Shown here: one piece after another, positions 2,173-10,015 of the stretch
Layout: every line of letters starts with the position of its first letter
Position numbering within the stretch: the stretch's first letter is position 1
Source: Bryobacteraceae bacterium
Lineage (GTDB): Bacteria > Acidobacteriota > Terriglobia > Bryobacterales > Bryobacteraceae
Direction: 5' to 3'
DNA length: 12,659 bases
NCBI GenBank assembly: GCA_030039005.1
Contig: JASHQT010000202.1
Coordinates: forward strand, 1-12,659
Position numbers and translations under genes: made by a program
The notes under the pieces: model-generated
What the model was told of the DNA's origin: nothing
Database searches by the model: none
Seen by the model: the letters and a program-made list of their open reading frames with translations, nothing else

Positions 2173-3395
2173 GGTTCGACTCGCGGAATCTGCGACAGGC
2201 TGCTCAGCTTGGCTTCGAGCATAATCAGCAGCGCCAGCAGAAACACCAGAAATGTGCCGAGCAGCGGAAGCGTCATCACAGCCTGAATTCCCCAGGCTTC
2301 GGCGAAATAGCCGAGCAGCCACGGCGCGAGGAAACCGCCCGTCATCGCGAGTGAAAAAAGACCGTTATAGAAACCCGGATGGTAATAGGGGAAGCGGTGG
2401 GCGATCTTCTGCACCACCAGCGGATAGATGGACGCGAACCCGGCGCCGACGAACAGAATGCCCATCACCGCGCCGAACCGATTGTTGGTGGAGGCCAGCA
2501 CGATCATCCCCAGCAGCGCCGAGATGATCGATCCGATGAACAGCCCGGCGCGATTGGCGCGCTTCAGTACAAACTGCGACAGGATGCGGCCTACGAGAAG
2601 CGACGCCCAGTACAGAGCCAGCAGGAGCAGAGCGCCGTTGGGACTGATGCCGAGCCTGCGAATCAGGAACAGCGGCAGCCATCCGGCCATGGACCATTCG
2701 TTGCCGAATTGGAAAAACAGCAGAAGGCTGAACAGCACCGCGCCGGGATTGCGGAAATCGCGCAGAACCTGAGCCAGAGGAAGCGATTCAAACGCGGGAT
2801 TGCGGGCATACTTGCCTTTGTGGCACACGATCGCGTAGAGGCCGGGCAACACGGCGAACAAGATCAGAATGCTCGGAACGGTGTAGACATAGTAGGTGCC
2901 GGCGACCAATAAAGCGGTCAGCAGGCTGCCCATGCCGAAGAGCAGGCCAGCGAAGTTCACCGTGGCCGCGCGATCGGCGCGATAGATGGGCGAGATGGCA
3001 TGGAAGACGGCGGCGTTGAGCAGTCCCGTGGCGAATCCGATCGCCAGCACGCCCGCCAGCCGCCATGTCGCGGGCTCCGGCGGCGAAGAGAGCGCCAGAA
3101 ACAGAAACGCGCCGCAAGCCAGAAGATTGGCCAGAATGAAGACGAATTTCAGTCCGCGCCGGGGAAGCAGATAGTGAGCGGCCGCAACTGACAGCACCAG
3201 CCCGCAAGCCAGGCTGAGAAAGTAATCGCCGGCTTCCGTGAAGCCCGGGCGAAGGTGATATCCCCAGGAAGGCAATATCGCGCCCAGGAACGACATCAAC
3301 ATCCCCGACACCAGGAATGCAGCCATGGAGCGCCAGGCGTCCCGCGCTACTGAATCGTCCGGGTCAAGCTGCAACTGTGCGGCGCTCGACATCAT
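2169..3395 (-). CDS. Major facilitator superfamily (MFS) transporter
   Basis: A 408-residue polytopic membrane protein with about twelve hydrophobic helices in two halves separated by a charged central loop (near HKGKYARNP). The first helix, with SFLGAILPSW, and the short basic loop PRRG between helices 2 and 3 resemble MFS carriers of the sugar/fucose-permease type, but the substrate cannot be read from sequence. It is the first gene of an operon with dacB, the two sharing a GTGA junction. A role in handling a cell-wall or sugar compound is possible from that pairing but is only inference. The start has two adjacent ATG codons (3395 and 3392). A TACAAT -10-like hexamer on the minus strand (3406-3401) lies so close that transcription would begin at or near the first ATG, which suggests a leaderless message. 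Confidence 0.85.
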   Translation of the reverse strand: MMSSAAQLQLDPDDSVARDAWRSMAAFLVSGMLMSFLGAILPSWGYHLRPGFTEAGDYFLSLACGLVLSVAAAHYLLPRRGLKFVFILANLLACGAFLFLALSSPPEPATWRLAGVLAIGFATGLLNAAVFHAISPIYRADRAATVNFAGLLFGMGSLLTALLVAGTYYVYTVPSILILFAVLPGLYAIVCHKGKYARNPAFESLPLAQVLRDFRNPGAVLFSLLLFFQFGNEWSMAGWLPLFLIRRLGISPNGALLLLALYWASLLVGRILSQFVLKRANRAGLFIGSIISALLGMIVLASTNNRFGAVMGILFVGAGFASIYPLVVQKIAHRFPYYHPGFYNGLFSLAMTGGFLAPWLLGYFAEAWGIQAVMTLPLLGTFLVFLLALLIMLEAKLSSLSQIPRVEP

Positions 3396-3426
3396 CGGCT
3401 ATTGTACTGCCTGTTACCGATTCCCG

Positions 3427-3592
3427 TAGACTATCCGGCGTGGAGCTTCCAGAAGTGGGATGGGAACGCTGCGCAGGGAACGGGTTATGAGCTACTTAAC
3501 ACGTCGCACGTAGCGTGGCTCGCGAATTGCACCTAGAGATGTAAGTAGGGTTAATCTTCCAAGGCTACGGGAGTTGCCTCTGGTTTTCGTCG
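3427..3592 (+). ncRNA. Candidate rod-shaped structured RNA, 6S-RNA-like
   Basis: Non-coding on both strands. The plus-strand transcript can fold into one long interrupted rod. CGGCG (3436-3440) pairs with CGTCG (3588-3592). CCAGAaGTGG (3449-3458) pairs with TTGCcTCTGG (3574-3583). GGAA (3477-3480) pairs with TTCC (3557-3560), GGTTA (3483-3487) with TAATC (3552-3556), and CTACTTA (3492-3498) with TAAGTAG (3542-3548). Between the second and third helices lies a large internal bubble (18 nt against 13 nt), and a terminal domain covers 3499-3541. Closed ends, a central bubble and about 155 nt of length are the architecture of 6S RNA, the RNA polymerase decoy; the assignment is structural only. 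A weak -10 (TAGACT, 3427-3432) would start the RNA near 3438-3440, and the terminator at 3593 follows directly. It is divergent from the MFS gene. Confidence 0.45.
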
Positions 3593-3627
3593 ATGCCCCG
3601 CAGGAATGCGGGGCATTTTTCTTTTTT
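3593..3627 (+). terminator. Strong intrinsic terminator of the 6S-like RNA
   Basis: A perfect 9-bp stem, ATGCCCCGC (3593-3601) and GCGGGGCAT (3608-3616), with a six-base loop AGGAAT, followed by a T-rich tract (3617-3627) broken by a single C. The T tract is on the plus strand, so it ends a rightward transcript. No protein gene lies upstream on that strand, which is the main reason to infer an RNA gene at 3427-3592. Confidence 0.88.
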
Positions 3628-3696
3628 CTAAACCGTCTGTATATGGTAGATAGAGCGACTGCTCATCTCTACATCTTGTGTGCCGCAAGAAACCGT

Positions 3697-3726
3697 TTGA
3701 CAGGCTTCGCTTCCGGATCTTATGAT
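3697..3726 (+). promoter_or_regulatory. Near-consensus sigma-70 promoter for the micro-ORF RNA
   Basis: TTGACA (3697-3702, a perfect -35) is separated by 18 bases from TATGAT (3721-3726, five of six to the -10 consensus). The predicted start of transcription is near 3732-3734, only about 6 bases before the anti-Shine-Dalgarno complement. It is one of the two best promoters in the window and serves a transcript only about 230-240 bases long. Confidence 0.75.
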
Positions 3727-3738
3727 GGTTTCATCACT

Positions 3739-3757
3739 GAGAAAGGAGGTGGTCCAG
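3739..3757 (+). promoter_or_regulatory. Extreme Shine-Dalgarno: 18-base complement of the 16S rRNA 3' end
   Basis: GAGAAAGGAGGTGGTCCAG. Bases 3740-3757 match the reverse complement of the usual bacterial 16S 3' tail (CTGGATCACCTCCTTTCT) at 17 of 18 positions, and the one difference still allows a G-U pair. Normal sites match 4-7 bases. The core AGGAGG (3744-3749) lies 14 bases from the ATG at 3764, farther than usual, while the extended pairing reaches to within 6 bases of it. Confidence 0.8.
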
Positions 3758-3763
3758 TCTAAC

Positions 3764-3820
3764 ATGGGTTTATGTAGTGACTGTAGCTTTAATTCCACGC
3801 GCGAGGTGGCCGACTGTTAA
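3764..3820 (+). CDS. 18-residue Cys-containing micro-protein or leader peptide
   Basis: The reading frame encodes MGLCSDCSFNSTREVADC, then TAA. It has a CxxC pair (Cys4, Cys7) and a C-terminal Cys18, a composition that could bind a metal or sense cysteine or charging, though that is inference. The case for translation is its position: a near-consensus promoter, a very short 5' leader made almost entirely of an extended 16S-complementary sequence, the ATG right behind it, and a terminator about 110 bases after the stop. The stop codon sits in the loop of a small hairpin (CGACT 3811-3815, AGTCG 3821-3825). I do not recognise the peptide. It could be a functional micro-protein, a leader peptide in an attenuator ahead of rpmE, or a by-product of an RNA whose job is to bind ribosomes. 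It is too short for ordinary gene finders. Confidence 0.5.
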   Translation: MGLCSDCSFNSTREVADC

Positions 3821-3932
3821 AGTCGAGCTCTGAACGTTCAGGTTTCGTTCAGTGACGAAGCCGCTGTTCCTGTGGACCGGCCGCTTCCCTGCGCGATACT
3901 AAAGTAATCCTGGGATTAGCCTAGGCTACCTG

Positions 3933-3970
3933 CCCCCGCAACGCCTGCTACGGTGCTGCGGGGGTTTGTA
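3933..3970 (+). terminator. Strong intrinsic terminator ahead of rpmE
   Basis: CCCCCGCA (3933-3940) pairs with TGCGGGGG (3957-3964). After one A-C mismatch the stem continues as CGCC with GGTG, leaving a loop of about six bases. A T-rich tail (TTTGTATTTT, 3965-3974) follows. It ends the micro-ORF transcript 70-80 bases before rpmE, so it either isolates rpmE or acts as an attenuator for it. Confidence 0.85.
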
Positions 3971-4043
3971 TTTTGGCGTTAGCCCCGAGACGTTGCTTGA
4001 CGGCTGCGGTACACTGAAGATTCGGAAGGATTCCCGTACAGAA

Positions 4044-4295
4044 ATGAAAGAGAAGATTCACCCCGCTTACGAAGAGATCAACGTCATTTGCGCTTGTGGG
4101 AGCACGTTCAGGACGCGTTCCACGCACAAGGGCGACATCCGCGTGGAAATTTGCTCCAGTTGCCATCCGTTCTTTACTGGACGTCAGAAGCTGGTGGACA
4201 CCGAAGGCCGCGTCGACCGTTTCCAGAAGAGGATTGCGAAATCGAAAGATCTGAAGGAAAAGAAGAGCGCCAAACAGCCAGTGGCCGCCCGCTAG
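4044..4295 (+). CDS. rpmE: 50S ribosomal protein L31 (bL31), zinc-binding (C+) type
   Basis: An 83-residue basic protein beginning [19 protein letters not shown], the usual L31 opening. The zinc ligands CxC (Cys16, Cys18) and CxxC (Cys37, Cys40) are all present, followed by the family segment [20 protein letters not shown] (41-60). This makes it the zinc-containing form that sits at the intersubunit bridge of the 70S ribosome. A lysine-rich tail (about 61-83) is longer than in E. coli. The frame opens further upstream (a TTG at 3966), but ATG at 4044 gives the conserved N-terminus and has GGAAGGA 13 bases before it. No clear promoter of its own is visible between 3975 and 4043. It meets the minus-strand operon end to end with a gap of only 15 bases. 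Confidence 0.95.
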
Positions 4296-4310
4296 ATTCC
4301 CAACCGCGGC

Positions 4311-4712
4311 TTAGCGCTGCTTCTGCTGTTCTTCCTGCTGCCTTTGTACGCGTTCGGCGTGCAGTTTCTCGTATTTGGGGAGCTGCTCCGGGCTGAGCAT
4401 CATTTTGACTTTCTCGATGTGCTCATCGCGGATCTGCCGGATTTCCTGGTTTTCCCGCTCGCGGGCCTGACGGAAGCGCATCAAGGTATCGTCCATGATG
4501 GCGCTTAACTGCTTCACCTGGTCCTCAGTCAAATCCAGCCGCGCCTTGCTTTCATCCATGTACTGCTTGCGCCAATCACCCGGCGGAGGTTGTGGGTTGA
4601 CGCTGCGCGCCACCGGCGGGTTGTAGGTGCGATATCCGAGCGCACCTACCACAGAGCCGCACACGAAGACCAGCAGCAGGTAGAAAGCGATCGGTAGGCT
4701 CTTACGGGTCAT
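4311..4712 (-). CDS. Membrane-anchored helical protein, Spy/CpxP/metal-resistance-like
   Basis: A 133-residue protein with one N-terminal membrane helix (about 7-27), a proline-rich spacer (31-45), and a long, highly charged helical domain outside the membrane. Two LTxxQ-type elements, LTEDQ (61-65) and LSPEQ (106-110), have the spacing seen in Spy/CpxP and periplasmic heavy-metal-sensor proteins, which act as periplasmic chaperones or stress sensors. The C-terminus is Gln/Glu/Lys/Arg-rich (QRQQEEQQKQR) and likely coiled or disordered. It is the last gene of the sigma-factor operon, 13 bases after the anti-sigma-like gene, with GGAAG directly before its ATG. The context suggests it helps detect or relieve envelope stress signalled by the sigma factor. 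Family membership is by motif and architecture only. Confidence 0.65.
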   Translation of the reverse strand: MTRKSLPIAFYLLLVFVCGSVVGALGYRTYNPPVARSVNPQPPPGDWRKQYMDESKARLDLTEDQVKQLSAIMDDTLMRFRQARERENQEIRQIRDEHIEKVKMMLSPEQLPKYEKLHAERVQRQQEEQQKQR

Positions 4713-4725
4713 CTTCCGTTAAGAC

Positions 4726-5055
4726 TCATTTTCCGTCGGGTTCAGTGTAATCGATGCGAATGCCGACCGCGGAAAGATTCTCGGTGGGATTGGCGCTGGC
4801 CAGCACGTCCACATAGTTGCCGGTCACCACCTGCTGCTTAGCGGCGGGGACCTGCAGGACGATGCCCAGCAGCAGGCAGATCGCAGCCGAGGCCACGACG
4901 AAGGCTTGCGTCAGCTTCTTCAAGCGCACGAGGAAGAACTGCCGCGCTTCGATCTTGCGCCACAGTTCGGGCATGAAATTGGCGCTCGCCTCCGGATCCG
5001 GCACGGCGGTGCGATATTGTTCGAACAGATGATCTAGCTGTCTATTCTCTTCCAT
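4726..5055 (-). CDS. Probable membrane anti-sigma factor
   Basis: A 109-residue protein with a cytoplasmic N-terminal half (1-48, including FMPELWRKIEARQ at 27-39), one membrane helix (about 50-69), and a short outer tail of about 40 residues. It lacks the HxxxCxxC of zinc-type anti-sigma factors. The assignment rests on its size, its one-helix layout, and its place directly after an ECF sigma factor gene on the same strand, with a 47-base gap. In such pairs the N-terminal part holds the sigma factor at the membrane until a signal triggers release. A GAGGAGG sequence lies 13 bases before the ATG. It could instead be an unrelated small membrane protein of the same operon. Confidence 0.6.
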   Translation of the reverse strand: MEENRQLDHLFEQYRTAVPDPEASANFMPELWRKIEARQFFLVRLKKLTQAFVVASAAICLLLGIVLQVPAAKQQVVTGNYVDVLASANPTENLSAVGIRIDYTEPDGK

Positions 5056-5102
5056 GCGCGTCTCGGCGCCTCCTCGTCCTCACGAAATATTCTACCCCTA
5101 AG

Positions 5103-5711
5103 TTACTCGCCTGTTTTGCCACCACCCGGGTCTGTTTTTCCGCCGCCTGGCTTGCGCGCCGCGTGATAGGCATTCAACACCCTCTGCCGGGCCCGGAAAA
5201 GCCGGACCTTTAGAGCATTCTCATTTACCGAATAGATCTTTTCAAGCTCTTTCAGCGATAAGCCTTCCACTTCTTTCAGCGTCAGAAGAATTCGATCTTG
5301 CTCGGAAACCGACTGCAGAAGCGATTCCACTAACTCCTTTACCTGCTTTTGACGCTGCTCCTCGCCGGAAACTTTCCCGCCCGCAGCGGCATCAGCCATC
5401 ATCACCTGCTGCTCGCTCAGGTCCGACATGCGCGCTTCGTTGCGCCGGCGCTGCTTTCGCAGATAATCATACGAAGCATTCACCGTGAGCCGGTAGAGCC
5501 AGGGCTCAAAAACCTCCGGCGTCCTGAGCTGATCCAGCGAATAATAGAGCCTGAGAAAAACCTCCTGAGCTACGTCCTCTACGTCTTCCGGCCGCCCGAT
5601 CAGCCGGGCGATAGTACCTAAAATCCGCTTCCTGTATGCAACTACCACCTGGTTGAACGCCGAATCATCGCCCTTTTGGGCTTTTTGGATGAGTTCGAAG
5701 TCGACCAGCAT
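5103..5711 (-). CDS. ECF-family RNA polymerase sigma factor
   Basis: A 202-residue alternative sigma factor of the RpoE-like group. Region 2 covers about 10-90, with the core-binding segment DVEDVAQEVFLRLYYSLD (43-60) and the promoter-melting/-10 part WLYRLTVNASYDYLRKQRRR (71-90). A linker follows (91-126), then region 4 (about 127-180) with the helix-turn-helix LSLKELEKIYSVNENALKVR (151-170) that reads the -35 element. The C-terminal tail carries the hexapeptide PGGGKT twice (188-193 and 195-200), which is not part of the family. It is the first gene of a three-gene operon with the anti-sigma-like and Spy-like genes. The ATG at 5711 has only a weak upstream purine run. I saw no convincing sigma-70 promoter; autoregulation by its own product is common in the family but not shown here. 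Confidence 0.92.
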   Translation of the reverse strand: MLVDFELIQKAQKGDDSAFNQVVVAYRKRILGTIARLIGRPEDVEDVAQEVFLRLYYSLDQLRTPEVFEPWLYRLTVNASYDYLRKQRRRNEARMSDLSEQQVMMADAAAGGKVSGEEQRQKQVKELVESLLQSVSEQDRILLTLKEVEGLSLKELEKIYSVNENALKVRLFRARQRVLNAYHAARKPGGGKTDPGGGKTGE

Positions 5712-6039: not shown

Positions 6040-6064
6040 AGAACTATGGAAGCATCGAAATTAA
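6024..6064 (+). promoter_or_regulatory. Possible ArsR operator: inverted repeat over the -10 and start codon
   Basis: TTAATTctGCGATG (6024-6037) and CATCGAAATTAA (6053-6064) are inverted copies apart from two extra bases in the left arm. The repeat covers the spacer, the -10 and the first arsR codons, so a bound repressor would block RNA polymerase. ArsR proteins typically bind AT-rich dyads in their own promoter. The alternative is an mRNA hairpin, although the left arm lies upstream of the predicted transcript. Confidence 0.4.
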
Positions 6065-6408
6065 AGCTGGCCGGCGAAGCGGACCGGACGGCCACCTATG
6101 CCGACATGTTCGCCGCCCTCGGGGCCGAGCCGCGTCTGCGAATTTTGCGTGTACTTTTAGCCGCGCACCCCGACGGAATGGTGGTCGGCGAGATTCAGAA
6201 CGAGCTCGGCATCACACCGTCTACTCTCTCGCACCACCTCGAAAAGCTCAAGAATGAGGATCTCATCAGCGTGCGCCGGGAAAGTACGTTTCTGCGATAC
6301 ACCGCGAACACCGCCGCGCTGGAAGAGCTGCTCGGGTTCCTGTACGCGGAGTGTTGCACCCGCAATAAAGCGATCAAGCCAACCAAAATCACGCAGCTCT
6401 GCAGATAG
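6046..6408 (+). CDS. arsR: ArsR-family arsenite-responsive repressor
   Basis: A 120-residue winged-helix repressor. The recognition region GEIQNELGITPSTLSHHLEK (48-67) is the standard ArsR/SmtB helix-turn-helix, followed by the wing (about 72-88, LISVRRESTFLRYTAN). It lacks the classical CxC in the DNA-binding helix. Instead it has adjacent Cys103-Cys104 (LYAECC) and Cys119 near the C-terminus, as in the ArsR subtype that binds As(III) with C-terminal cysteines (the Acidithiobacillus ferrooxidans type). Binding of arsenite would release the operator and turn on the operon. It is the first gene, eight bases before arsC1 and reading in the same direction. The start at 6046 appears leaderless. 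Confidence 0.93.
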   Translation: MEASKLKLAGEADRTATYADMFAALGAEPRLRILRVLLAAHPDGMVVGEIQNELGITPSTLSHHLEKLKNEDLISVRRESTFLRYTANTAALEELLGFLYAECCTRNKAIKPTKITQLCR

Positions 6409-6416
6409 GAGGAGGC

Positions 6417-6878
6417 ATGGCGATCAAAACGAAGGTGCTGTTTCTTTGTACCGAGAATTCCTGCCGGACCCAGATGGCAGAAGCATTTCTGCGACAGATG
6501 ACCGGCGATGAGTTCGAGATCGTCAGCGCAGGAGCGGAGGCGGGCCGGTTGGACCCGGAAGCTGTCAGCGCCATGCGCGAAGTAGGCATCGACATCTCGT
6601 CGGCGAGCGCCAAGGCCGTCGATCCGTATCTCCGGCAAAGGTTTCATTACGTGATAACGCTGTGCGATCGCGAGAAAGAGCGGACATGCCCCATATTTCC
6701 CGGTGCGATCTGGAGGCAAAAGTGGACGATTGAGAGCCCCGCCGCCATGAAGGCCGCGGGCCTTGATCACGCATTCGCTGTGCGTCGCGTTCGCGATGAG
6801 ATCCATCGCCGCGTCGCTGAATTCATCGAGAAACACCAGCATCCGAAATCGCCGGAGGGGAAATCAGCATGGAACTGA
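6417..6878 (+). CDS. arsC: Arsenate reductase, low-molecular-weight phosphatase type (copy 1, altered general acid)
   Basis: A 153-residue enzyme of the LMW-PTP-like ArsC family, which reduces arsenate to arsenite in the cytoplasm using a three-cysteine relay, usually with thioredoxin. The P-loop CTENSCR (Cys11-Arg17) and the relay cysteines Cys83 (TLCDRE) and Cys91 (RTCPIFP) are present. In place of the usual (D/E)DPA, where the Asp is the general acid, this protein has ESPAA with Ser107 at the Asp position; the codon is AGC. The second P-loop residue is also unusual (TEN instead of TGN). It may be slowed, use Glu106 instead, or have a shifted role. A GAGGAGG sequence stands just before the ATG, and the last 10 bases overlap arsM. 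A second, canonical copy lies at 9596. Confidence 0.88.
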   Translation: MAIKTKVLFLCTENSCRTQMAEAFLRQMTGDEFEIVSAGAEAGRLDPEAVSAMREVGIDISSASAKAVDPYLRQRFHYVITLCDREKERTCPIFPGAIWRQKWTIESPAAMKAAGLDHAFAVRRVRDEIHRRVAEFIEKHQHPKSPEGKSAWN

Positions 6879-7705
6879 AGGAAACAGTACGGGAGAAGTA
6901 CGGCGAGGCGGCGCGGCGCGTCAAATCCGTCGGCAGTTCCTGCTGTGGAGCGGCGCCAAGTTCGCTCGGCTGCGTGGATCCGATCACGTCGAATCTCTAT
7001 GATCCGAGCGATACCAGCCAGCTTCCAGAAGAGGCGGTACTGGCGTCTCTGGGCTGTGGGAATCCCACCACCCTGGCCGAATTGAAGCCGGGCGAGACGG
7101 TCCTTGATCTCGGGTCCGGCGGCGGCATTGATGTCCTGCTCTCGGCCAAACGCATAGGGCCGTCAGGCAAGGCTTATGGTCTGGACATGACCGATGAGAT
7201 GCTCGCACTCGCGCGCGAGAATCAGCGCAAAGCGGGCGTGGAAAACGTTGAGTTTCTCAAGGGCGAGATCGAGAACATTCCTCTGCCGGACAAATCGGTG
7301 GATGTCGTCATTTCCAATTGTGTGATCAACCTTTCGGGCGACAAGAACCGCGCGATTCGCGAAGCTTTCCGCGTGTTAAAGCCGGGCGGGCGGTTGGCTG
7401 TCTCCGATGTTGTGGCGCGCGGAGAAGTGCCCGCCGAGGCGCGGCAAAGTATGTTGCTTTGGATCGGCTGCATTGCAGGCGCGCTGGAAGAGTACGAATA
7501 CGTGCGGGCTTTGGCGCGGGCCGGCTTCGATTCAATCGACGTGGAGCCAACCCGTATCTACAACATCGAAAACGCGCGGGCATTTCTCGCGGGCGAGGGC
7601 ATCAACGTAGACGCGATTGCGCCTCAATTGGACGGAAAGTTTATGAGTGCGTTCATCCGCGCTACGAAGCCCGCGGGGTGTTGCGCACCCGGCTGTTGCG
7701 CTTAA
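6869..7705 (+). CDS. arsM: Arsenite S-adenosylmethionine methyltransferase
   Basis: A 278-residue class I SAM-dependent methyltransferase that methylates As(III) to volatile or less retained species. The SAM motif DLGSGGGID is at 80-88, with downstream motifs LDMTDEML (105-112) and LKPGGRLAVSD (170-180). The As(III)-binding cysteines are in the expected places: Cys63 (LGCGNPT), Cys151 (SNCVINL) and Cys201 (WIGCIAGAL), plus the N-terminal Cys25-Cys26 and Cys35. The C-terminus ends in Cys pairs (GCCAPGCCA, 270-278), a common tail in bacterial ArsM that may collect arsenite. The start overlaps the end of arsC1 by 10 bases and has GGAGGGG before it, so translation is probably coupled. Acr3 begins 11 bases after its stop. 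Confidence 0.95.
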   Translation: MELKETVREKYGEAARRVKSVGSSCCGAAPSSLGCVDPITSNLYDPSDTSQLPEEAVLASLGCGNPTTLAELKPGETVLDLGSGGGIDVLLSAKRIGPSGKAYGLDMTDEMLALARENQRKAGVENVEFLKGEIENIPLPDKSVDVVISNCVINLSGDKNRAIREAFRVLKPGGRLAVSDVVARGEVPAEARQSMLLWIGCIAGALEEYEYVRALARAGFDSIDVEPTRIYNIENARAFLAGEGINVDAIAPQLDGKFMSAFIRATKPAGCCAPGCCA

Positions 7706-7716
7706 GGGGCGGTATC

Positions 7717-8814
7717 GTGTCTGAGACTACACTGGCCATACCTCGCCCTCGGGCCTCCGGCGGTCTCGGCCGCTTCGAACGCTATCTCTCGGTCTGGGTT
7801 GCCCTATGCATGATTGCCGGCGTGCTCCTGGGTAGAGCGTTGCCCGCGGCAACATCTGCACTCCGTAGCGTCGAGTTCAGCAAGGGCAGTCAGATCAATC
7901 TCCCCACCGCCGTGTTGATTTGGCTGATGATCACTCCCATGATGATGAAGGTCGATTTTGGAGCCATCCGCAATGTTGGCCGTAAACCGGCCGGGTTGTG
8001 CGTGACCTTATTCGTTAACTGGGTCGTGAAGCCTTTCTCGATGGCGGCTCTGGCGTGGCTATTTTTTCGGATGGTTTTTGCTGCATTCCTCACGCCGGCC
8101 GAAGCGAGTCAATACATTGCCGGATGCATCATCCTAGCCGCCGCTCCGTGTACGGCGATGGTCTTCGTTTGGAGCCATCTGACGAAGGGCGATCCCGCCT
8201 ACACCCTGGTCCAGGTCTCTGTAAATGACCTGATCATGCTCGTGCTATTCGTTCCCATCGTACAGTTCCTCGTGAACGGTGCGTCCTCGCTTACCGTGCC
8301 GTTTGCGGTTCTTCTTACGTCGGTTATCGTCTTTATCGTTGTACCGTTGGCGGCGGGCACAATCTTGCGAGCGGTGCTAATTGGGAAATATGGGCGCGGC
8401 TGGTTCGAACAAACCTTGCTTCCCAAGTTTGCGCCGGTCACCATTTTCGCGCTGCTCGCAACGCTCGTTCTCATATTCGCGTTCCAGGCGGACAACATCA
8501 CAAGCCGGTTTTTTCACGTGGTGCTGATCGCCATTCCAATCACCTTGCAGGTATACCTGAATTCGGGACTGGCGTATGGTCTGATGCGCCTGCTCAAGGT
8601 AGAGCACTCCGTGGCCGCGCCTGGCGCGCTGATCGGTGCTTCGAATTTCTTTGAGTTGGCTGTTGCAACAGCGATCGCGCTCTTCGGACCGGAGTCTGGA
8701 GCGGCGCTCGCGACAGTTGTCGGCGTGTTGGTCGAGGTTCCCGTCATGCTGTCGGTTTGTACGGCGTGCAATCGCACCCGTCATTGGTTCCCGTCGTCGT
8801 CCGCCACGTCGTAG
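7717..8814 (+). CDS. acr3: Arsenite efflux permease, ACR3 family
   Basis: A 365-residue inner-membrane protein with about ten helices that pumps arsenite out of the cell. Family marks are YLSVWVALCMIAGVLLGR (23-40), the segment INLPTAVLIWLMITPMMMKV (60-79), and AAAPCTAMVFVWSHLTKGDP (141-160), whose Cys145 corresponds to the essential Cys of ACR3 helix 4. Near the end is GASNFFELAVATAIALFGPE, including the conserved Glu. The frame is open back to 7318, but that part lies inside arsM. GTG at 7717 gives the normal length and N-terminus and has AAGGGGCGG a few bases before it. It is the third step of the operon: ArsC makes the arsenite that this pump removes. Confidence 0.95.
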   Translation: MSETTLAIPRPRASGGLGRFERYLSVWVALCMIAGVLLGRALPAATSALRSVEFSKGSQINLPTAVLIWLMITPMMMKVDFGAIRNVGRKPAGLCVTLFVNWVVKPFSMAALAWLFFRMVFAAFLTPAEASQYIAGCIILAAAPCTAMVFVWSHLTKGDPAYTLVQVSVNDLIMLVLFVPIVQFLVNGASSLTVPFAVLLTSVIVFIVVPLAAGTILRAVLIGKYGRGWFEQTLLPKFAPVTIFALLATLVLIFAFQADNITSRFFHVVLIAIPITLQVYLNSGLAYGLMRLLKVEHSVAAPGALIGASNFFELAVATAIALFGPESGAALATVVGVLVEVPVMLSVCTACNRTRHWFPSSSATS

Positions 8815-8824
8815 AGCGCGCCGC

Positions 8825-9599
8825 ATGCGTTTCTTAATCATCGGTGGGAGTGATGCCGGCATTAGCGCCGCTCTGAGGGCGCGCGAACTCGCCCCGGATG
8901 TCGAGGTGAGCGTAGTGCTCGCAGACGCATTTCCAAACTTCAGCATCTGTGGACTCCCGTTCTTCCTAAGCGGGGAAATGCCGGACTGGCGCGACCTGGC
9001 TCATCGGACCGAATTCGGGGGAATCGAACTGCTGACCATTAGTTCGGCAAGAAGCATTTGTTTCAGAGATCGTACGGTCGAGATCGTTGGGCCTCGCGGC
9101 CCCCGGGCCTTACGTTATGACCGGCTGTTGATCGCCACCGGCGCTCGTCCGGCCATGCCTCCCGTCAGCGGTCTGGATCTCAACCTTCCTTTAGGGACCA
9201 CATCACACAAGCCAGGACGCGTGGCCGGCGAAAACGCAGTGGGCGGGGATCGTCAGTTGGCGGGAGTGGCGGGCTCGCAGATTGTGAAGGTCCTCGACTT
9301 GGCAATGGCCCGCACCGGCTTGCGGGAGGGGGAGGCGCATGACGCCGGATTCTCTCCAGTCACTGCGTCAACAGCGGGCTTCGATCACAAGGCTTACTAT
9401 GGTTGGGCATTGGCAATTGAGCGTCGCCAAGCAAATTGACGTCTTTGCGACAGCATTGTTTGACAGAATGAAAGTTGACAATCTCAACGACGTCGACCTC
9501 AGCTACACTCCCCCGCTAGGCAGCCCCTGGGATGTTGTGCAACTGGTGGCGCAGAAGTGGACGGCAAGCCAAGAGATCCTATTGAGGGTGGCGACTTGA
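8825..9599 (+). pseudogene. Decayed FAD-dependent NAD(P)H oxidase/CoA-disulfide-reductase-like gene
   Basis: The N-terminus is a good FAD-binding domain: Rossmann GGSDAGISAA (7-16), the redox cysteine in NFSICGLPF (Cys42), and ATGARP (105-110). At about residue 119 (near base 9180) the sequence jumps straight into NLPLGTTSHKPGRVAGENAV, so the NAD-binding domain and the second FAD strand are missing in frame, roughly 170-190 residues against the family. After DHKAYY (base 9400) a second, shorter block is missing and the frame shifts. The first frame stops at 9439. The true dimerisation-domain tail, GHWQLSVAKQIDVF to PWDVVQLVAQKW, continues in the frame from 9402 to 9599. Such flavoproteins occur in arsenic operons, but this copy cannot be a normal enzyme. 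A 204-residue product of unknown use could still be made. Confidence 0.88.
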
Positions 9600-10015
9600 G
9601 CACGAGCAAGCAACGGGTATTGATTCTTTGTACGGGTAATTCGGCCCGTAGTCAGATGGCTGAAGGGCTTTTGCGCCATGACGCACACGACCGCTTCGAT
9701 GTCTTCAGTGCTGGGACGAAACCCGGCCGAGTTCGGCCGGAAGCCGTCGCGGTGATGGAGGAGTTGGGCATCGACATCTCTGGGCATCGATCCAAGCATG
9801 TGGATGAGTTTCGCGACTCCACTTTCGATTACGTTCTTACCGTTTGCGATAACGCAAAGGAGAGCTGTCCAGTTTACCCTGGGCACGCCAACCGGCTCCA
9901 TCACAGTTTTGAAGATCCCGCGGCAGCTCAAGGATCGGAAGAGCAGCGCCTCTCTGCATTTCGTTCGGTTCGTGATCAGATCCGCCAATACTTGCGGACA
10001 TTCCCCGAGCAATAG
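9596..10015 (+). CDS. arsC: Arsenate reductase, low-molecular-weight phosphatase type (copy 2, canonical)
   Basis: A 139-residue enzyme of the LMW-PTP-like ArsC family with every key residue in place: P-loop CTGNSAR (Cys12-Arg18), relay cysteines Cys84 (TVCDNAKE) and Cys91 (SCPVYPG), and the general acid in FEDPAAA (Asp107-Pro108). It reduces arsenate for export by Acr3 and is likely the main reductase of this operon. I chose TTG at 9596 because it gives the usual length, has GAGGGTG six bases before it, and overlaps the TGA of the decayed upstream gene as TTGA; GTG at 9557 would add 13 unrelated residues. It is clearly diverged from copy 1, with different P-loop and acid loop, so it is not a recent duplicate. 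Confidence 0.92.
   Translation: MSTSKQRVLILCTGNSARSQMAEGLLRHDAHDRFDVFSAGTKPGRVRPEAVAVMEELGIDISGHRSKHVDEFRDSTFDYVLTVCDNAKESCPVYPGHANRLHHSFEDPAAAQGSEEQRLSAFRSVRDQIRQYLRTFPEQ

What the first reader, a model, noticed from the sequence alone, without database searches (positions are those of the whole stretch)
3697..3970. Short RNA with an 18-base complement to the 16S rRNA tail and an 18-codon Cys micro-ORF
A near-consensus promoter, a leader made almost only of anti-anti-Shine-Dalgarno sequence (17 of 18 plus one G-U), a micro-ORF with CxxC and a terminal Cys, and a strong terminator form a complete, independent unit in a gap most annotations would leave blank. The pairing is far longer than translation needs, and AGGAGG is 14 bases from the ATG, so the duplex could hold the 30S subunit as much as start translation. 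Possible roles are a very highly expressed micro-protein, a ribosome-sequestering RNA, or a sensor of free 30S. The sequence facts are direct; the roles are inference.
Basis: partly seen in the sequence, partly recalled or inferred. Interest (0 to 1): 0.85.

Follow-up and report, generated by a model that had tools for sequence, protein, structure and literature searches.

The report
Ribosome-clasping micro-mRNA shared across phyla
A tiny RNA gene that can zip along 20 bases of the ribosome's RNA tail and carries an 18-codon reading frame is real and conserved in acidobacteria, and it appears to be kin to an actinobacterial "small RNA" of unknown function.

Summary
The unit is real: promoter, 20-nt complement to the 16S rRNA tail, 18-codon ORF and terminator lie where stated. 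It was found at, near or in the genomes of 77 of 80 rpmE-bearing contigs. Where rpmE lacks it, 13 of 16 genomes carry one copy elsewhere: a stand-alone gene, not an rpmE leader. A covariance model matches 46 of 297 genomes of the phylum. Two divergent copies clearly exceed Rfam's cut-off for RF02471 Ms_IGR-5, an actinobacterial "sRNA", and a third is borderline. Of 126 candidate sites, 118 end Glu-Val + three codons + stop, all 118 with an in-frame first start codon; Nocardia, Tsukamurella and a phage-labelled scaffold share this ending. So Ms_IGR-5 and this element are probably one family of small mRNAs. CxxC is not conserved (7 of 124). Closest kinds: Ms_IGR-5, alphaproteobacterial CC2171, rreB (recalled). 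Best reading: a ribosome-occupied small mRNA whose 5' end captures 30S subunits; a ribosome finishing the ORF opens a helix and may pause on an internal Shine-Dalgarno. Its purpose is inferred.

The parts
3697..3702 (+). -35 hexamer TTGACA
   Evidence: mean promoter score 8.6 of 12 over 124 elements vs 3.3 in mononucleotide shuffles
3721..3726 (+). -10 hexamer TATGAT; transcript start inferred near 3733
   Evidence: -10 end to AAGGAGG distance is 14-16 nt in 110 of 124 elements
3735..3740 (+). CACTGA, 5' strand of a pseudoknot with 3849-3854
   Evidence: 95-98% of cells paired; double-sided changes at the two outer pairs only (7 G-C for A-U at cols 8/169; one U-A for C-G at cols 3/182); the four inner pairs never vary. 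Across 124 elements a 5'-end complement scoring 6 or more lies downstream in 54% vs 13% of shuffles
3740..3759 (+). 20-nt complement (two G-U) to the 3' tail of 16S rRNA; extended Shine-Dalgarno
   Evidence: conserved
3764..3820 (+). micro-ORF, 18 codons + TAA: MGLCSDCSFNSTREVADC
   Evidence: first start codon in frame in 118 of 118 signature-bearing elements
3803..3808 (+). GAGGTG (codons Glu-Val), SD-like, followed by exactly 9 nt and the stop codon
   Evidence: same in the Ms_IGR-5 consensus and in L201, L202 and L203, read
3798..3812 (+). 5' strand of the long helix joining the ORF end to 3878-3893
   Evidence: 6 of 14 pairs with double-sided changes, 87.6% of cells paired
3811..3825 (+). 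hairpin CGACT/AGTCG around the stop codon (alternative to the top of the long helix)
   Evidence: MFE folds; covariation not tested
3841..3862 (+). hairpin 3841-3847/3856-3862 whose loop (3849-3854) forms the pseudoknot
   Evidence: 5 of 7 pairs with double-sided changes, e.g. U-A to C-G in 19 of 57, G-C to A-U in 14 of 57
3878..3893 (+). 3' strand of the long helix
3924..3930 (+). GGCTACC, conserved pre-terminator motif that resembles the anti-SD and can pair with GGTGGCC of the ORF; in the MFE fold its CTACC part pairs with the SD
   Evidence: motif [CT]ACC in 42 of 73 elements with a strict terminator vs 19% of shuffles; MFE fold
3932..3965 (+). intrinsic terminator hairpin
   Evidence: strict terminators in 73 of 124 elements vs 27 of 620 shuffles (the window's own, with a mismatch in the stem, was missed by that test)
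4044..4295 (+). rpmE (ribosomal protein bL31), the neighbour; not part of the unit. A -10-like TACACT lies before it (read by eye; one search lists no promoter there)
   Evidence: Pfam PF01197, 108.6 bits; element found elsewhere in 13 of 16 genomes whose rpmE lacks it

Best explanation
It is a stand-alone gene, one copy per genome as far as found, for a small mRNA of about 235 nt. SHOWN (sequence and comparison): own promoter, placed so that the RNA should start about 7 nt before a 20-nt complement of the 16S rRNA tail; a conserved short ORF of 11-22 codons that, in nearly every acidobacterial copy read, ends Glu-Val-x-x-x-stop; in Bryobacterales a pseudoknotted fold in which the last codons and the stop lie in or beside a helix; a terminator. 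It is most likely the acidobacterial branch of the family that Rfam lists as Ms_IGR-5 in Actinobacteria. INFERRED: the 5' end captures a 30S subunit through the whole free 16S tail; the captured ribosome translates the short ORF. When it reaches the stop codon its anti-SD can pair with the internal GAGGUG, 6 nt from the P-site codon, so it tends to dwell there and holds the 3' helix open. The state of the RNA (folded or ribosome-occupied; stable or degraded) therefore reports or tunes ribosome availability.
For: Conservation of promoter, complement, frame and fold; one match per genome and not tied to rpmE; relatives across the phylum. Kinship with RF02471: L109 50.3 bits and G157 50.6 against a cut-off of 45, full model length; L104 47.3 though 44.5 for the same place (G173). 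Same ORF ending in three actinobacterial-type copies, e.g. Nocardia MDSSRTREVAVR* (L201 and L203). Coding: 118 of 118 first start codons in frame; Arg kept through five synonymous codons in 101 of 124 elements. Duplex -37.8 kcal/mol. Published Ribo-seq reads on MS_IGR-5 in two mycobacteria (PMC4974804, passage) and transcripts in Streptomyces (PMC8079986, PMC8780764, passages).
Against: No expression data for this organism. Scores of 17-29 bits can come from the SD alone: a Streptomyces plasmid site at an annotated gene start (L137), without the ORF signature, scores 16.7 bits with R1 and 28.7 with RF01867, so R1's hits on the actinobacterial copies (16.4-21.0 bits), the weaker hits and the CC2171 match to the window (19.6 bits) do not prove kinship. 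RF02471 gives no hit in 14 control genomes; an actinobacterium, C. glutamicum, was named among the controls. GAG and GTG are nearly invariant as letters (123 and 116 of 124), so part of the 'protein' conservation may be RNA constraint. Of 126 candidates 8 lack the signature, among them two true-looking elements (L002, L054) and two alphaproteobacterial copies. ORF-end pairing beats 29 of 30 shuffles in only 32 of 69 and 15 of 55 elements. The pseudoknot is not evident in Nocardia. The fold of 3805-3896 alone is not exceptional (17 of 200 shuffles as stable). Ribo-seq reads also fall on non-coding RNAs.
Confidence: 0.6

Rival explanations
1. A 30S tail guard or trap: the RNA works by occupying the whole 16S 3' tail, idling or protecting 30S subunits (for instance from the 3' exonuclease RNase R) while the short ORF merely clears or times the ribosome.
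For: The duplex is much longer than initiation needs and keeps both halves even where one letter is inserted (GGAGGATGGTCCAGCC class, 31 of 396 genomes). RNase R starts at the anti-SD, and an SD oligonucleotide increased protection of 16S rRNA in vitro (PMC10901742, passages).
Against: Does not explain why frame, start codon and the three-codon spacing to the stop are kept. Needs an abundance near that of ribosomes, which is untested.
Confidence: 0.25
2. An ordinary mRNA for a micro-protein that acts in trans, with an over-strong ribosome binding site.
For: Frame kept in 118 of 118; Arg conserved through synonymous codons.
Against: Only the last six residues are alike; the N-terminal part varies in length and sequence; CxxC in 7 of 124. 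Near-invariant GAGGTG letters and the fold point to an RNA role.
Confidence: 0.1
3. A cis leader or attenuator of rpmE (bL31).
For: Within 500 nt upstream of rpmE in 58 of 80 loci, with a terminator in between.
Against: 13 of 16 genomes whose rpmE lacks it carry it elsewhere; 1.2 and 2.4 kb away in L001 and L046.
Confidence: 0.03
4. Chance match or an rRNA fragment in antisense.
For: The 20 nt are, but for two G-U, the reverse complement of the 16S 3' end.
Against: Conserved with frame, fold and flanks over many genomes; the reversed control pattern gave 0 of 396 hits.
Confidence: 0.01

Closest known systems
Ms_IGR-5, Rfam RF02471 (Actinobacteria sRNA, described from Mycobacterium smegmatis)
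   Same: 5' ACAC(x)AGG + AAGGAGGUGGUCC, a frame ending GAG GUG + 3 codons + stop (consensus), structured 3' part, terminator; L109 and G157 score above its cut-off, L104 does in one of two calls
   Different: The window copy does not reach the cut-off; Bryobacterales copies have a different middle fold with the 5' pseudoknot; Rfam lists it as an sRNA, not an mRNA
CC2171, Rfam RF01867 (Caulobacter sRNA; alphaproteobacteria)
   Same: GAAAGGAGGUGAUCCAG at the 5' end, ORF right behind it, terminator; weak full-length match to the window (19.6 bits, E 0.023-0.042), which the SD alone could give (compare L137)
   Different: Below cut-off (75); in the copies read (L130-L134) the peptide begins MSHC and none ends Glu-Val + 3 codons + stop (L130 ends Glu-Ala + 3 codons); R1 scores there only 6-14 bits
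rreB / rreR small mRNAs with an extended Shine-Dalgarno (Hahn et al. 2017, RNA Biol, doi 10.1080/15476286.2016.1256534)
   Same: Conserved small mRNA with an unusually long SD (title seen in a reference list); 17-nt SD and 30S association are recalled, not read
   Different: Alphaproteobacteria only, as recalled; the paper is not held, so sequences were not compared
L31 (rpmE) leader RNAs such as L31-Actinobacteria RF03158 (name seen)
   Same: Often upstream of rpmE here
   Different: Away from rpmE in 13 of 16 genomes tested; no Rfam hit at cut-off in the window

Membership tests
RF02471 Ms_IGR-5 | Rfam gathering score of 45 bits | tested here: not met
   Window: no hit at gathering nor among hits at E<=10. 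Divergent relatives L109 50.3 and G157 50.6 meet it; L104/G173 47.3 but 44.5; L110 44.8
RF02471 Ms_IGR-5 | Extended SD followed by an ORF ending GAG GUG + 9 nt + stop (feature found here, not Rfam's own definition) | tested here: met
   window 3740-3820; L201-L203 read; consensus
RF01867 CC2171 | Rfam gathering score of 75 bits | tested here: not met
   19.6 bits. In 5 genomes the best weak hits fall on the element in G141 and G017 and elsewhere in G173, with none in G269 and G217; 6 of 14 control genomes also ring at E<=1
RF01867 CC2171 | Peptide starting MSHC (seen in the copies read here, not Rfam's definition) | tested here: not met
   window MGLC...; alphaproteobacterial copies MSHC...
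rreB-type small mRNA | At least 16 nt complementary to the 16S 3' end upstream of an sORF (recalled criterion) | tested here: met
   20 nt including two G-U
rreB-type small mRNA | Independent small transcript | not testable with these tools
   Promoter conserved, terminator in 73 of 124; no RNA data held for this organism
rreB-type small mRNA | Association with 30S subunits (recalled) | not testable with these tools
   Only Ribo-seq reads on the actinobacterial relative in the literature
rpmE (L31) leader | Located in the 5' UTR of rpmE | tested here: not met
   13 of 16 genomes have it away from rpmE

The most novel reading that the evidence does not exclude
An ancient gene shared by Acidobacteriota and Actinobacteria, with a look-alike in alphaproteobacteria, codes for an RNA that physically reads the ribosome. 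It clasps the entire 16S tail at its 5' end and parks the same ribosome at a stop codon through a second Shine-Dalgarno and a Glu-Val-x-x-x nascent end. The folded or ribosome-occupied state would be a general gauge or buffer of free 30S subunits.
Probability: 0.3. Interest if true: 0.9.

Novelty: new variant of a known kind. Interest (0 to 1): 0.72.

Why it matters
It would turn an Rfam entry of unknown function into a testable small mRNA and extend the kind to another phylum. It gives a strict new signature: SD duplex of about 20 nt, short ORF, Glu-Val + 3 codons + stop. A gene kept across phyla whose 5' end is a copy of the 16S complement makes a clear question testable: does the cell use an RNA to sense or hold small ribosomal subunits?

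Tried and rejected
rpmE leader: rejected by whole-genome searches. Chance or antisense rRNA: rejected. Known Rfam family at its own cut-off: none for the window. Cys motif as the functional core: rejected. Viral carriage: one scan of viral contigs gave a single hit (L200) in a glycine-rich-looking stretch, judged chance. RNAalifold's own consensus paired the 5' end with the SD; no pair of that helix showed a double-sided change, so I replaced it by a structure with a pseudoknot that I drew from the same sequences and counted, so it leans towards them. Pattern counts over 396 genomes are lower bounds and partial: the pattern (31 of 396, reversed control 0) catches only the class with an inserted letter, and that (53 of 396) has a reversed control that matches in 24 of 396 by my count, so many of the 53 may be chance. 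One search scored only 10 candidates per genome, and its 46 of 297 include at least three Bryobacterales-type genomes already in hand (G017, G008, G207). The 80 loci are not 80 genomes (L014 and L028 share a MAG). Sequences left out before counts: A1 holds 57 of the 60 elements aligned (L002, L011 and L042 dropped by me as too divergent to align). The 124 elements were kept only if start, frame and stop spacing fitted, so the codon counts are conditional on that; the wider number is 118 of 126 candidates, the other 8 being L002, L054, two alphaproteobacterial copies (L130, L133), one 16S antisense site (L169) and three judged chance (L170, L171, L200). The elements are related, so 118 is not 118 independent cases. 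rreB itself could not be read.

Full report
What was checked. The window region 3697-3970 was read directly. One promoter-like site with 11 of 12 matches was found in 3000-4800, where shuffles give 0.7 on average. The sequence 3740-3759 pairs without a break with the 16S rRNA tail taken from a relative, genome G020, whose tail reads GCGGCTGGATCACCTCCTTTCT: 20 positions, two of them G-U, -37.8 kcal/mol, against -5.0 to -19.8 kcal/mol for nine start regions of the same window; the best other stretch tested on either strand is -28.4. The ORF 3764-3820 encodes MGLCSDCSFNSTREVADC. The terminator hairpin 3932-3965 folds at -25.6 kcal/mol, better than all 200 shuffles, while 3805-3896 alone is not exceptional (17 of 200 shuffles as stable); the whole RNA 3733-3970 has z -3.7. 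No Rfam family reaches its cut-off in the window and ARAGORN finds no tRNA or tmRNA.

Conservation near by. The neighbouring gene is rpmE (Pfam L31, 108.6 bits). A scan of genome contigs with its protein gave 80 loci, nearly all titled Bryobacterales or other acidobacterial MAGs. Of these 80, 58 carry the motif within 500 nt upstream of rpmE (which counts 59 of 81 with the window). In four more (L013, L025, L028, L063) part of the element is visible at the contig end. In L001 and L046 it lies 1.2 and 2.4 kb away. The genomes of the other 16 were searched with the covariance model R1: 13 of 16 have it elsewhere (L051, L065 and L076's genomes do not), and each of the 17 genomes hit among the 20 searched has one match. 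That makes 77 of 80 loci, and it speaks against an rpmE leader.

Fold. On 57 aligned elements (A1) a structure with a long helix joining the ORF end to a downstream strand, a hairpin, a small helix, and a pseudoknot from the 5' CACTGA to the hairpin's loop keeps 90.0% of cells paired (shuffles 86.1; slid versions 27-48%). It has 16 pairs with changes on both sides (shuffles 6.5) and a covariation score of 0.214 (shuffles 0.149); none of 500 shuffles reached any of the five measures. The pseudoknot rests on 7 double changes at one pair and one at another; its four inner pairs never vary and say nothing. The small helix is the weakest (80% of cells paired). The structure was drawn from these sequences, and shuffles do not remove relatedness, so this is strong but not a probability.

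Spread. R1 finds a match in 46 of 297 genomes of the phylum of G017, one per genome, from E 3.7e-39 to 7.5e-3, with only 10 candidates scored per genome. Thirty loci were returned; three were already in hand, and the other 27 were read: all 27 show an extended SD and a short frame with GAGGTG, 26 of them a CAC-type 5' end (L117 differs). Of 20 loci sent to Rfam (19 divergent ones and the Bryobacterales-type L081), 11 are listed with RF02471 Ms_IGR-5 at E<=10: L109 50.3 and L104 47.3 bits above the cut-off of 45, L110 44.8, L113 39.3, L106 35.6, L124 30.6, L103 30.4, and four lower. In 199 genomes of the phylum RF02471 matches 13 at E<=0.1, one over the cut-off (G157, 50.6); there the place of L104 scores 44.5, and one of the 13 (G085) matches only part of the model; none of 14 control genomes rings. 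Actinobacterial copies were reached through plasmid and phage-record searches: Nocardia farcinica L201 142.7 bits, a scaffold labelled phage, L203, 76.9, and Tsukamurella L202 44.3, just below the cut-off.

A control against. R1 finds L201-L203 with 21.0, 20.1 and 16.4 bits (E 1.3e-5 to 3e-4 in a search of 11 loci), but a Streptomyces plasmid site that shares only the SD (L137, at an annotated gene start) scores 16.7 bits with R1 and 28.7 bits with RF01867. Matches in that range can thus come from the SD alone. The kinship with Ms_IGR-5 therefore rests on the 39-51-bit full-length matches and on the shared ORF ending, not on the low scores; for CC2171 it is not established.

The reading frame. 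Of 126 candidate sites with the SD motif in the loci held, 118 show a Glu-Val (or variant) codon pair followed by exactly three codons and a stop, and in all 118 the first start codon after the SD is in frame with it. Peptides run from MSSYHSEVAAA and MDSSRTREVAVR (Nocardia) to MGLCSDCSFNSTREVADC (window); L202 and L203 read MVNFRTEEVAAA and MISDRTCEVARR. In the 124 elements selected for a fitting frame Arg precedes Glu in 101, written with CGT, CGC, CGA, AGG and CGG, which speaks for the peptide. GAG (123) and GTG (116) are almost fixed as letters, which speaks for the RNA. Two further deep copies, L199 and L193, read by eye, end EV + three codons + stop, although R1 gives them only 14.2 and 6.3 bits.

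How it may work. The -10 box ends 14-16 nt before AAGGAGG in 110 of 124 elements, so the RNA should begin about 7 nt before the 16S complement (inference). The complement covers the single-stranded tail and reaches the base of helix 45 (16S structure, recalled). The internal GAGGUG lies 6 nt from the P-site codon when the stop codon is in the A site (sequence shows directly), a spacing typical of a Shine-Dalgarno (recalled); pausing there is inference. The ORF end pairs with downstream sequence better than 29 of 30 shuffles in 32 of 69 Bryobacterales-type and 15 of 55 other elements. In Nocardia and in L109/L110 the partner includes the pre-terminator motif CAGUCACC or CCACC. A ribosome at the end of the ORF would open this helix. 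What that does to the cell is not known. The rival that the RNA guards or holds 30S tails has a precedent: an SD oligonucleotide increased protection of 16S rRNA from RNase R in vitro (PMC10901742, passages).

Known kinds. MS_IGR-5 shows ribosome-protected reads in M. abscessus and M. smegmatis, as do tRNAs and the sRNAs 6C and F6 (PMC4974804, passage). Transcripts are reported in Streptomyces lividans (PMC8079986) and S. avermitilis (PMC8780764), and an M. smegmatis sRNA overlaps IGR-5 (PMC10454040); only passages were seen. CC2171 copies were read on alphaproteobacterial plasmids: L130 and L131 pass its cut-off, L132-L134 score 68-70 against 75; they have the same long SD but MSHC peptides. 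[quoted passage not shown] 2017) was seen in a reference list; its content (rreB, 17-nt SD, 30S association) is recalled. I saw no paper joining these families or placing them in Acidobacteriota in the listings; these are open-licence papers only, and searches listed 15 of 1,702, 25 of 49 and 12 of 45, so the absence is weak.

Verdict. The gene is most likely the acidobacterial branch of a family filed as actinobacterial sRNA Ms_IGR-5, and both look like small mRNAs. Identity as this family: about 0.85; translation of the ORF: about 0.85; 30S capture by the long duplex: about 0.85; the ribosome-gauge role: about 0.3.

Noticed in passing
micro-ORF 3764-3820 and relatives, 124 elements in all: The N-terminal part of the peptide is Ser-rich (299 Ser) and nearly free of Ala (121 of 124 have none before the last five residues); Ser is written AGT in 169 of 299 codons versus 10 of 142 in five window genes. 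Unexplained.
   Followed up: partly
e.g. L101, L108, L111, L118-L123, L138-L167: A class of 31 of 396 genomes of the phylum has one extra letter inside the SD (mostly GGAGGATGGTCCAGCC or GGAGGATGATCCAGCC), so the 16S duplex would carry a bulge while both halves are kept.
   Followed up: partly
window 6046-10015: Arsenic cluster: ArsR-type regulator, two thioredoxin-type arsenate reductases (both below the curated cut-offs), arsenite methyltransferase, ACR3 efflux pump.
   Followed up: partly
L052 and L098: A MAG titled Bordetella parapertussis holds Bryobacterales-type rpmE and this element; probably mislabelled.
   Followed up: no
L203 1501-1676: An unverified 'Bacteriophage sp.' scaffold from human faeces carries an Ms_IGR-5 copy (76.9 bits); probably bacterial DNA or a bacterial flank.
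   Followed up: no
L134 82-1413: The Skermanella CC2171 copy lies just downstream of a gene annotated GTPase HflX, itself downstream of a ribonuclease J gene.
   Followed up: no
L130 1501-1674: The Methylobacterium radiotolerans CC2171 micro-ORF ends Glu-Ala + three codons + stop (read), an echo of the Glu-Val ending; the other four copies read do not show it.
   Followed up: no
window 4726-5711: ECF sigma factor (5103-5711, minus strand) followed by a small ORF with no Pfam match that could be its anti-sigma partner.
   Followed up: no
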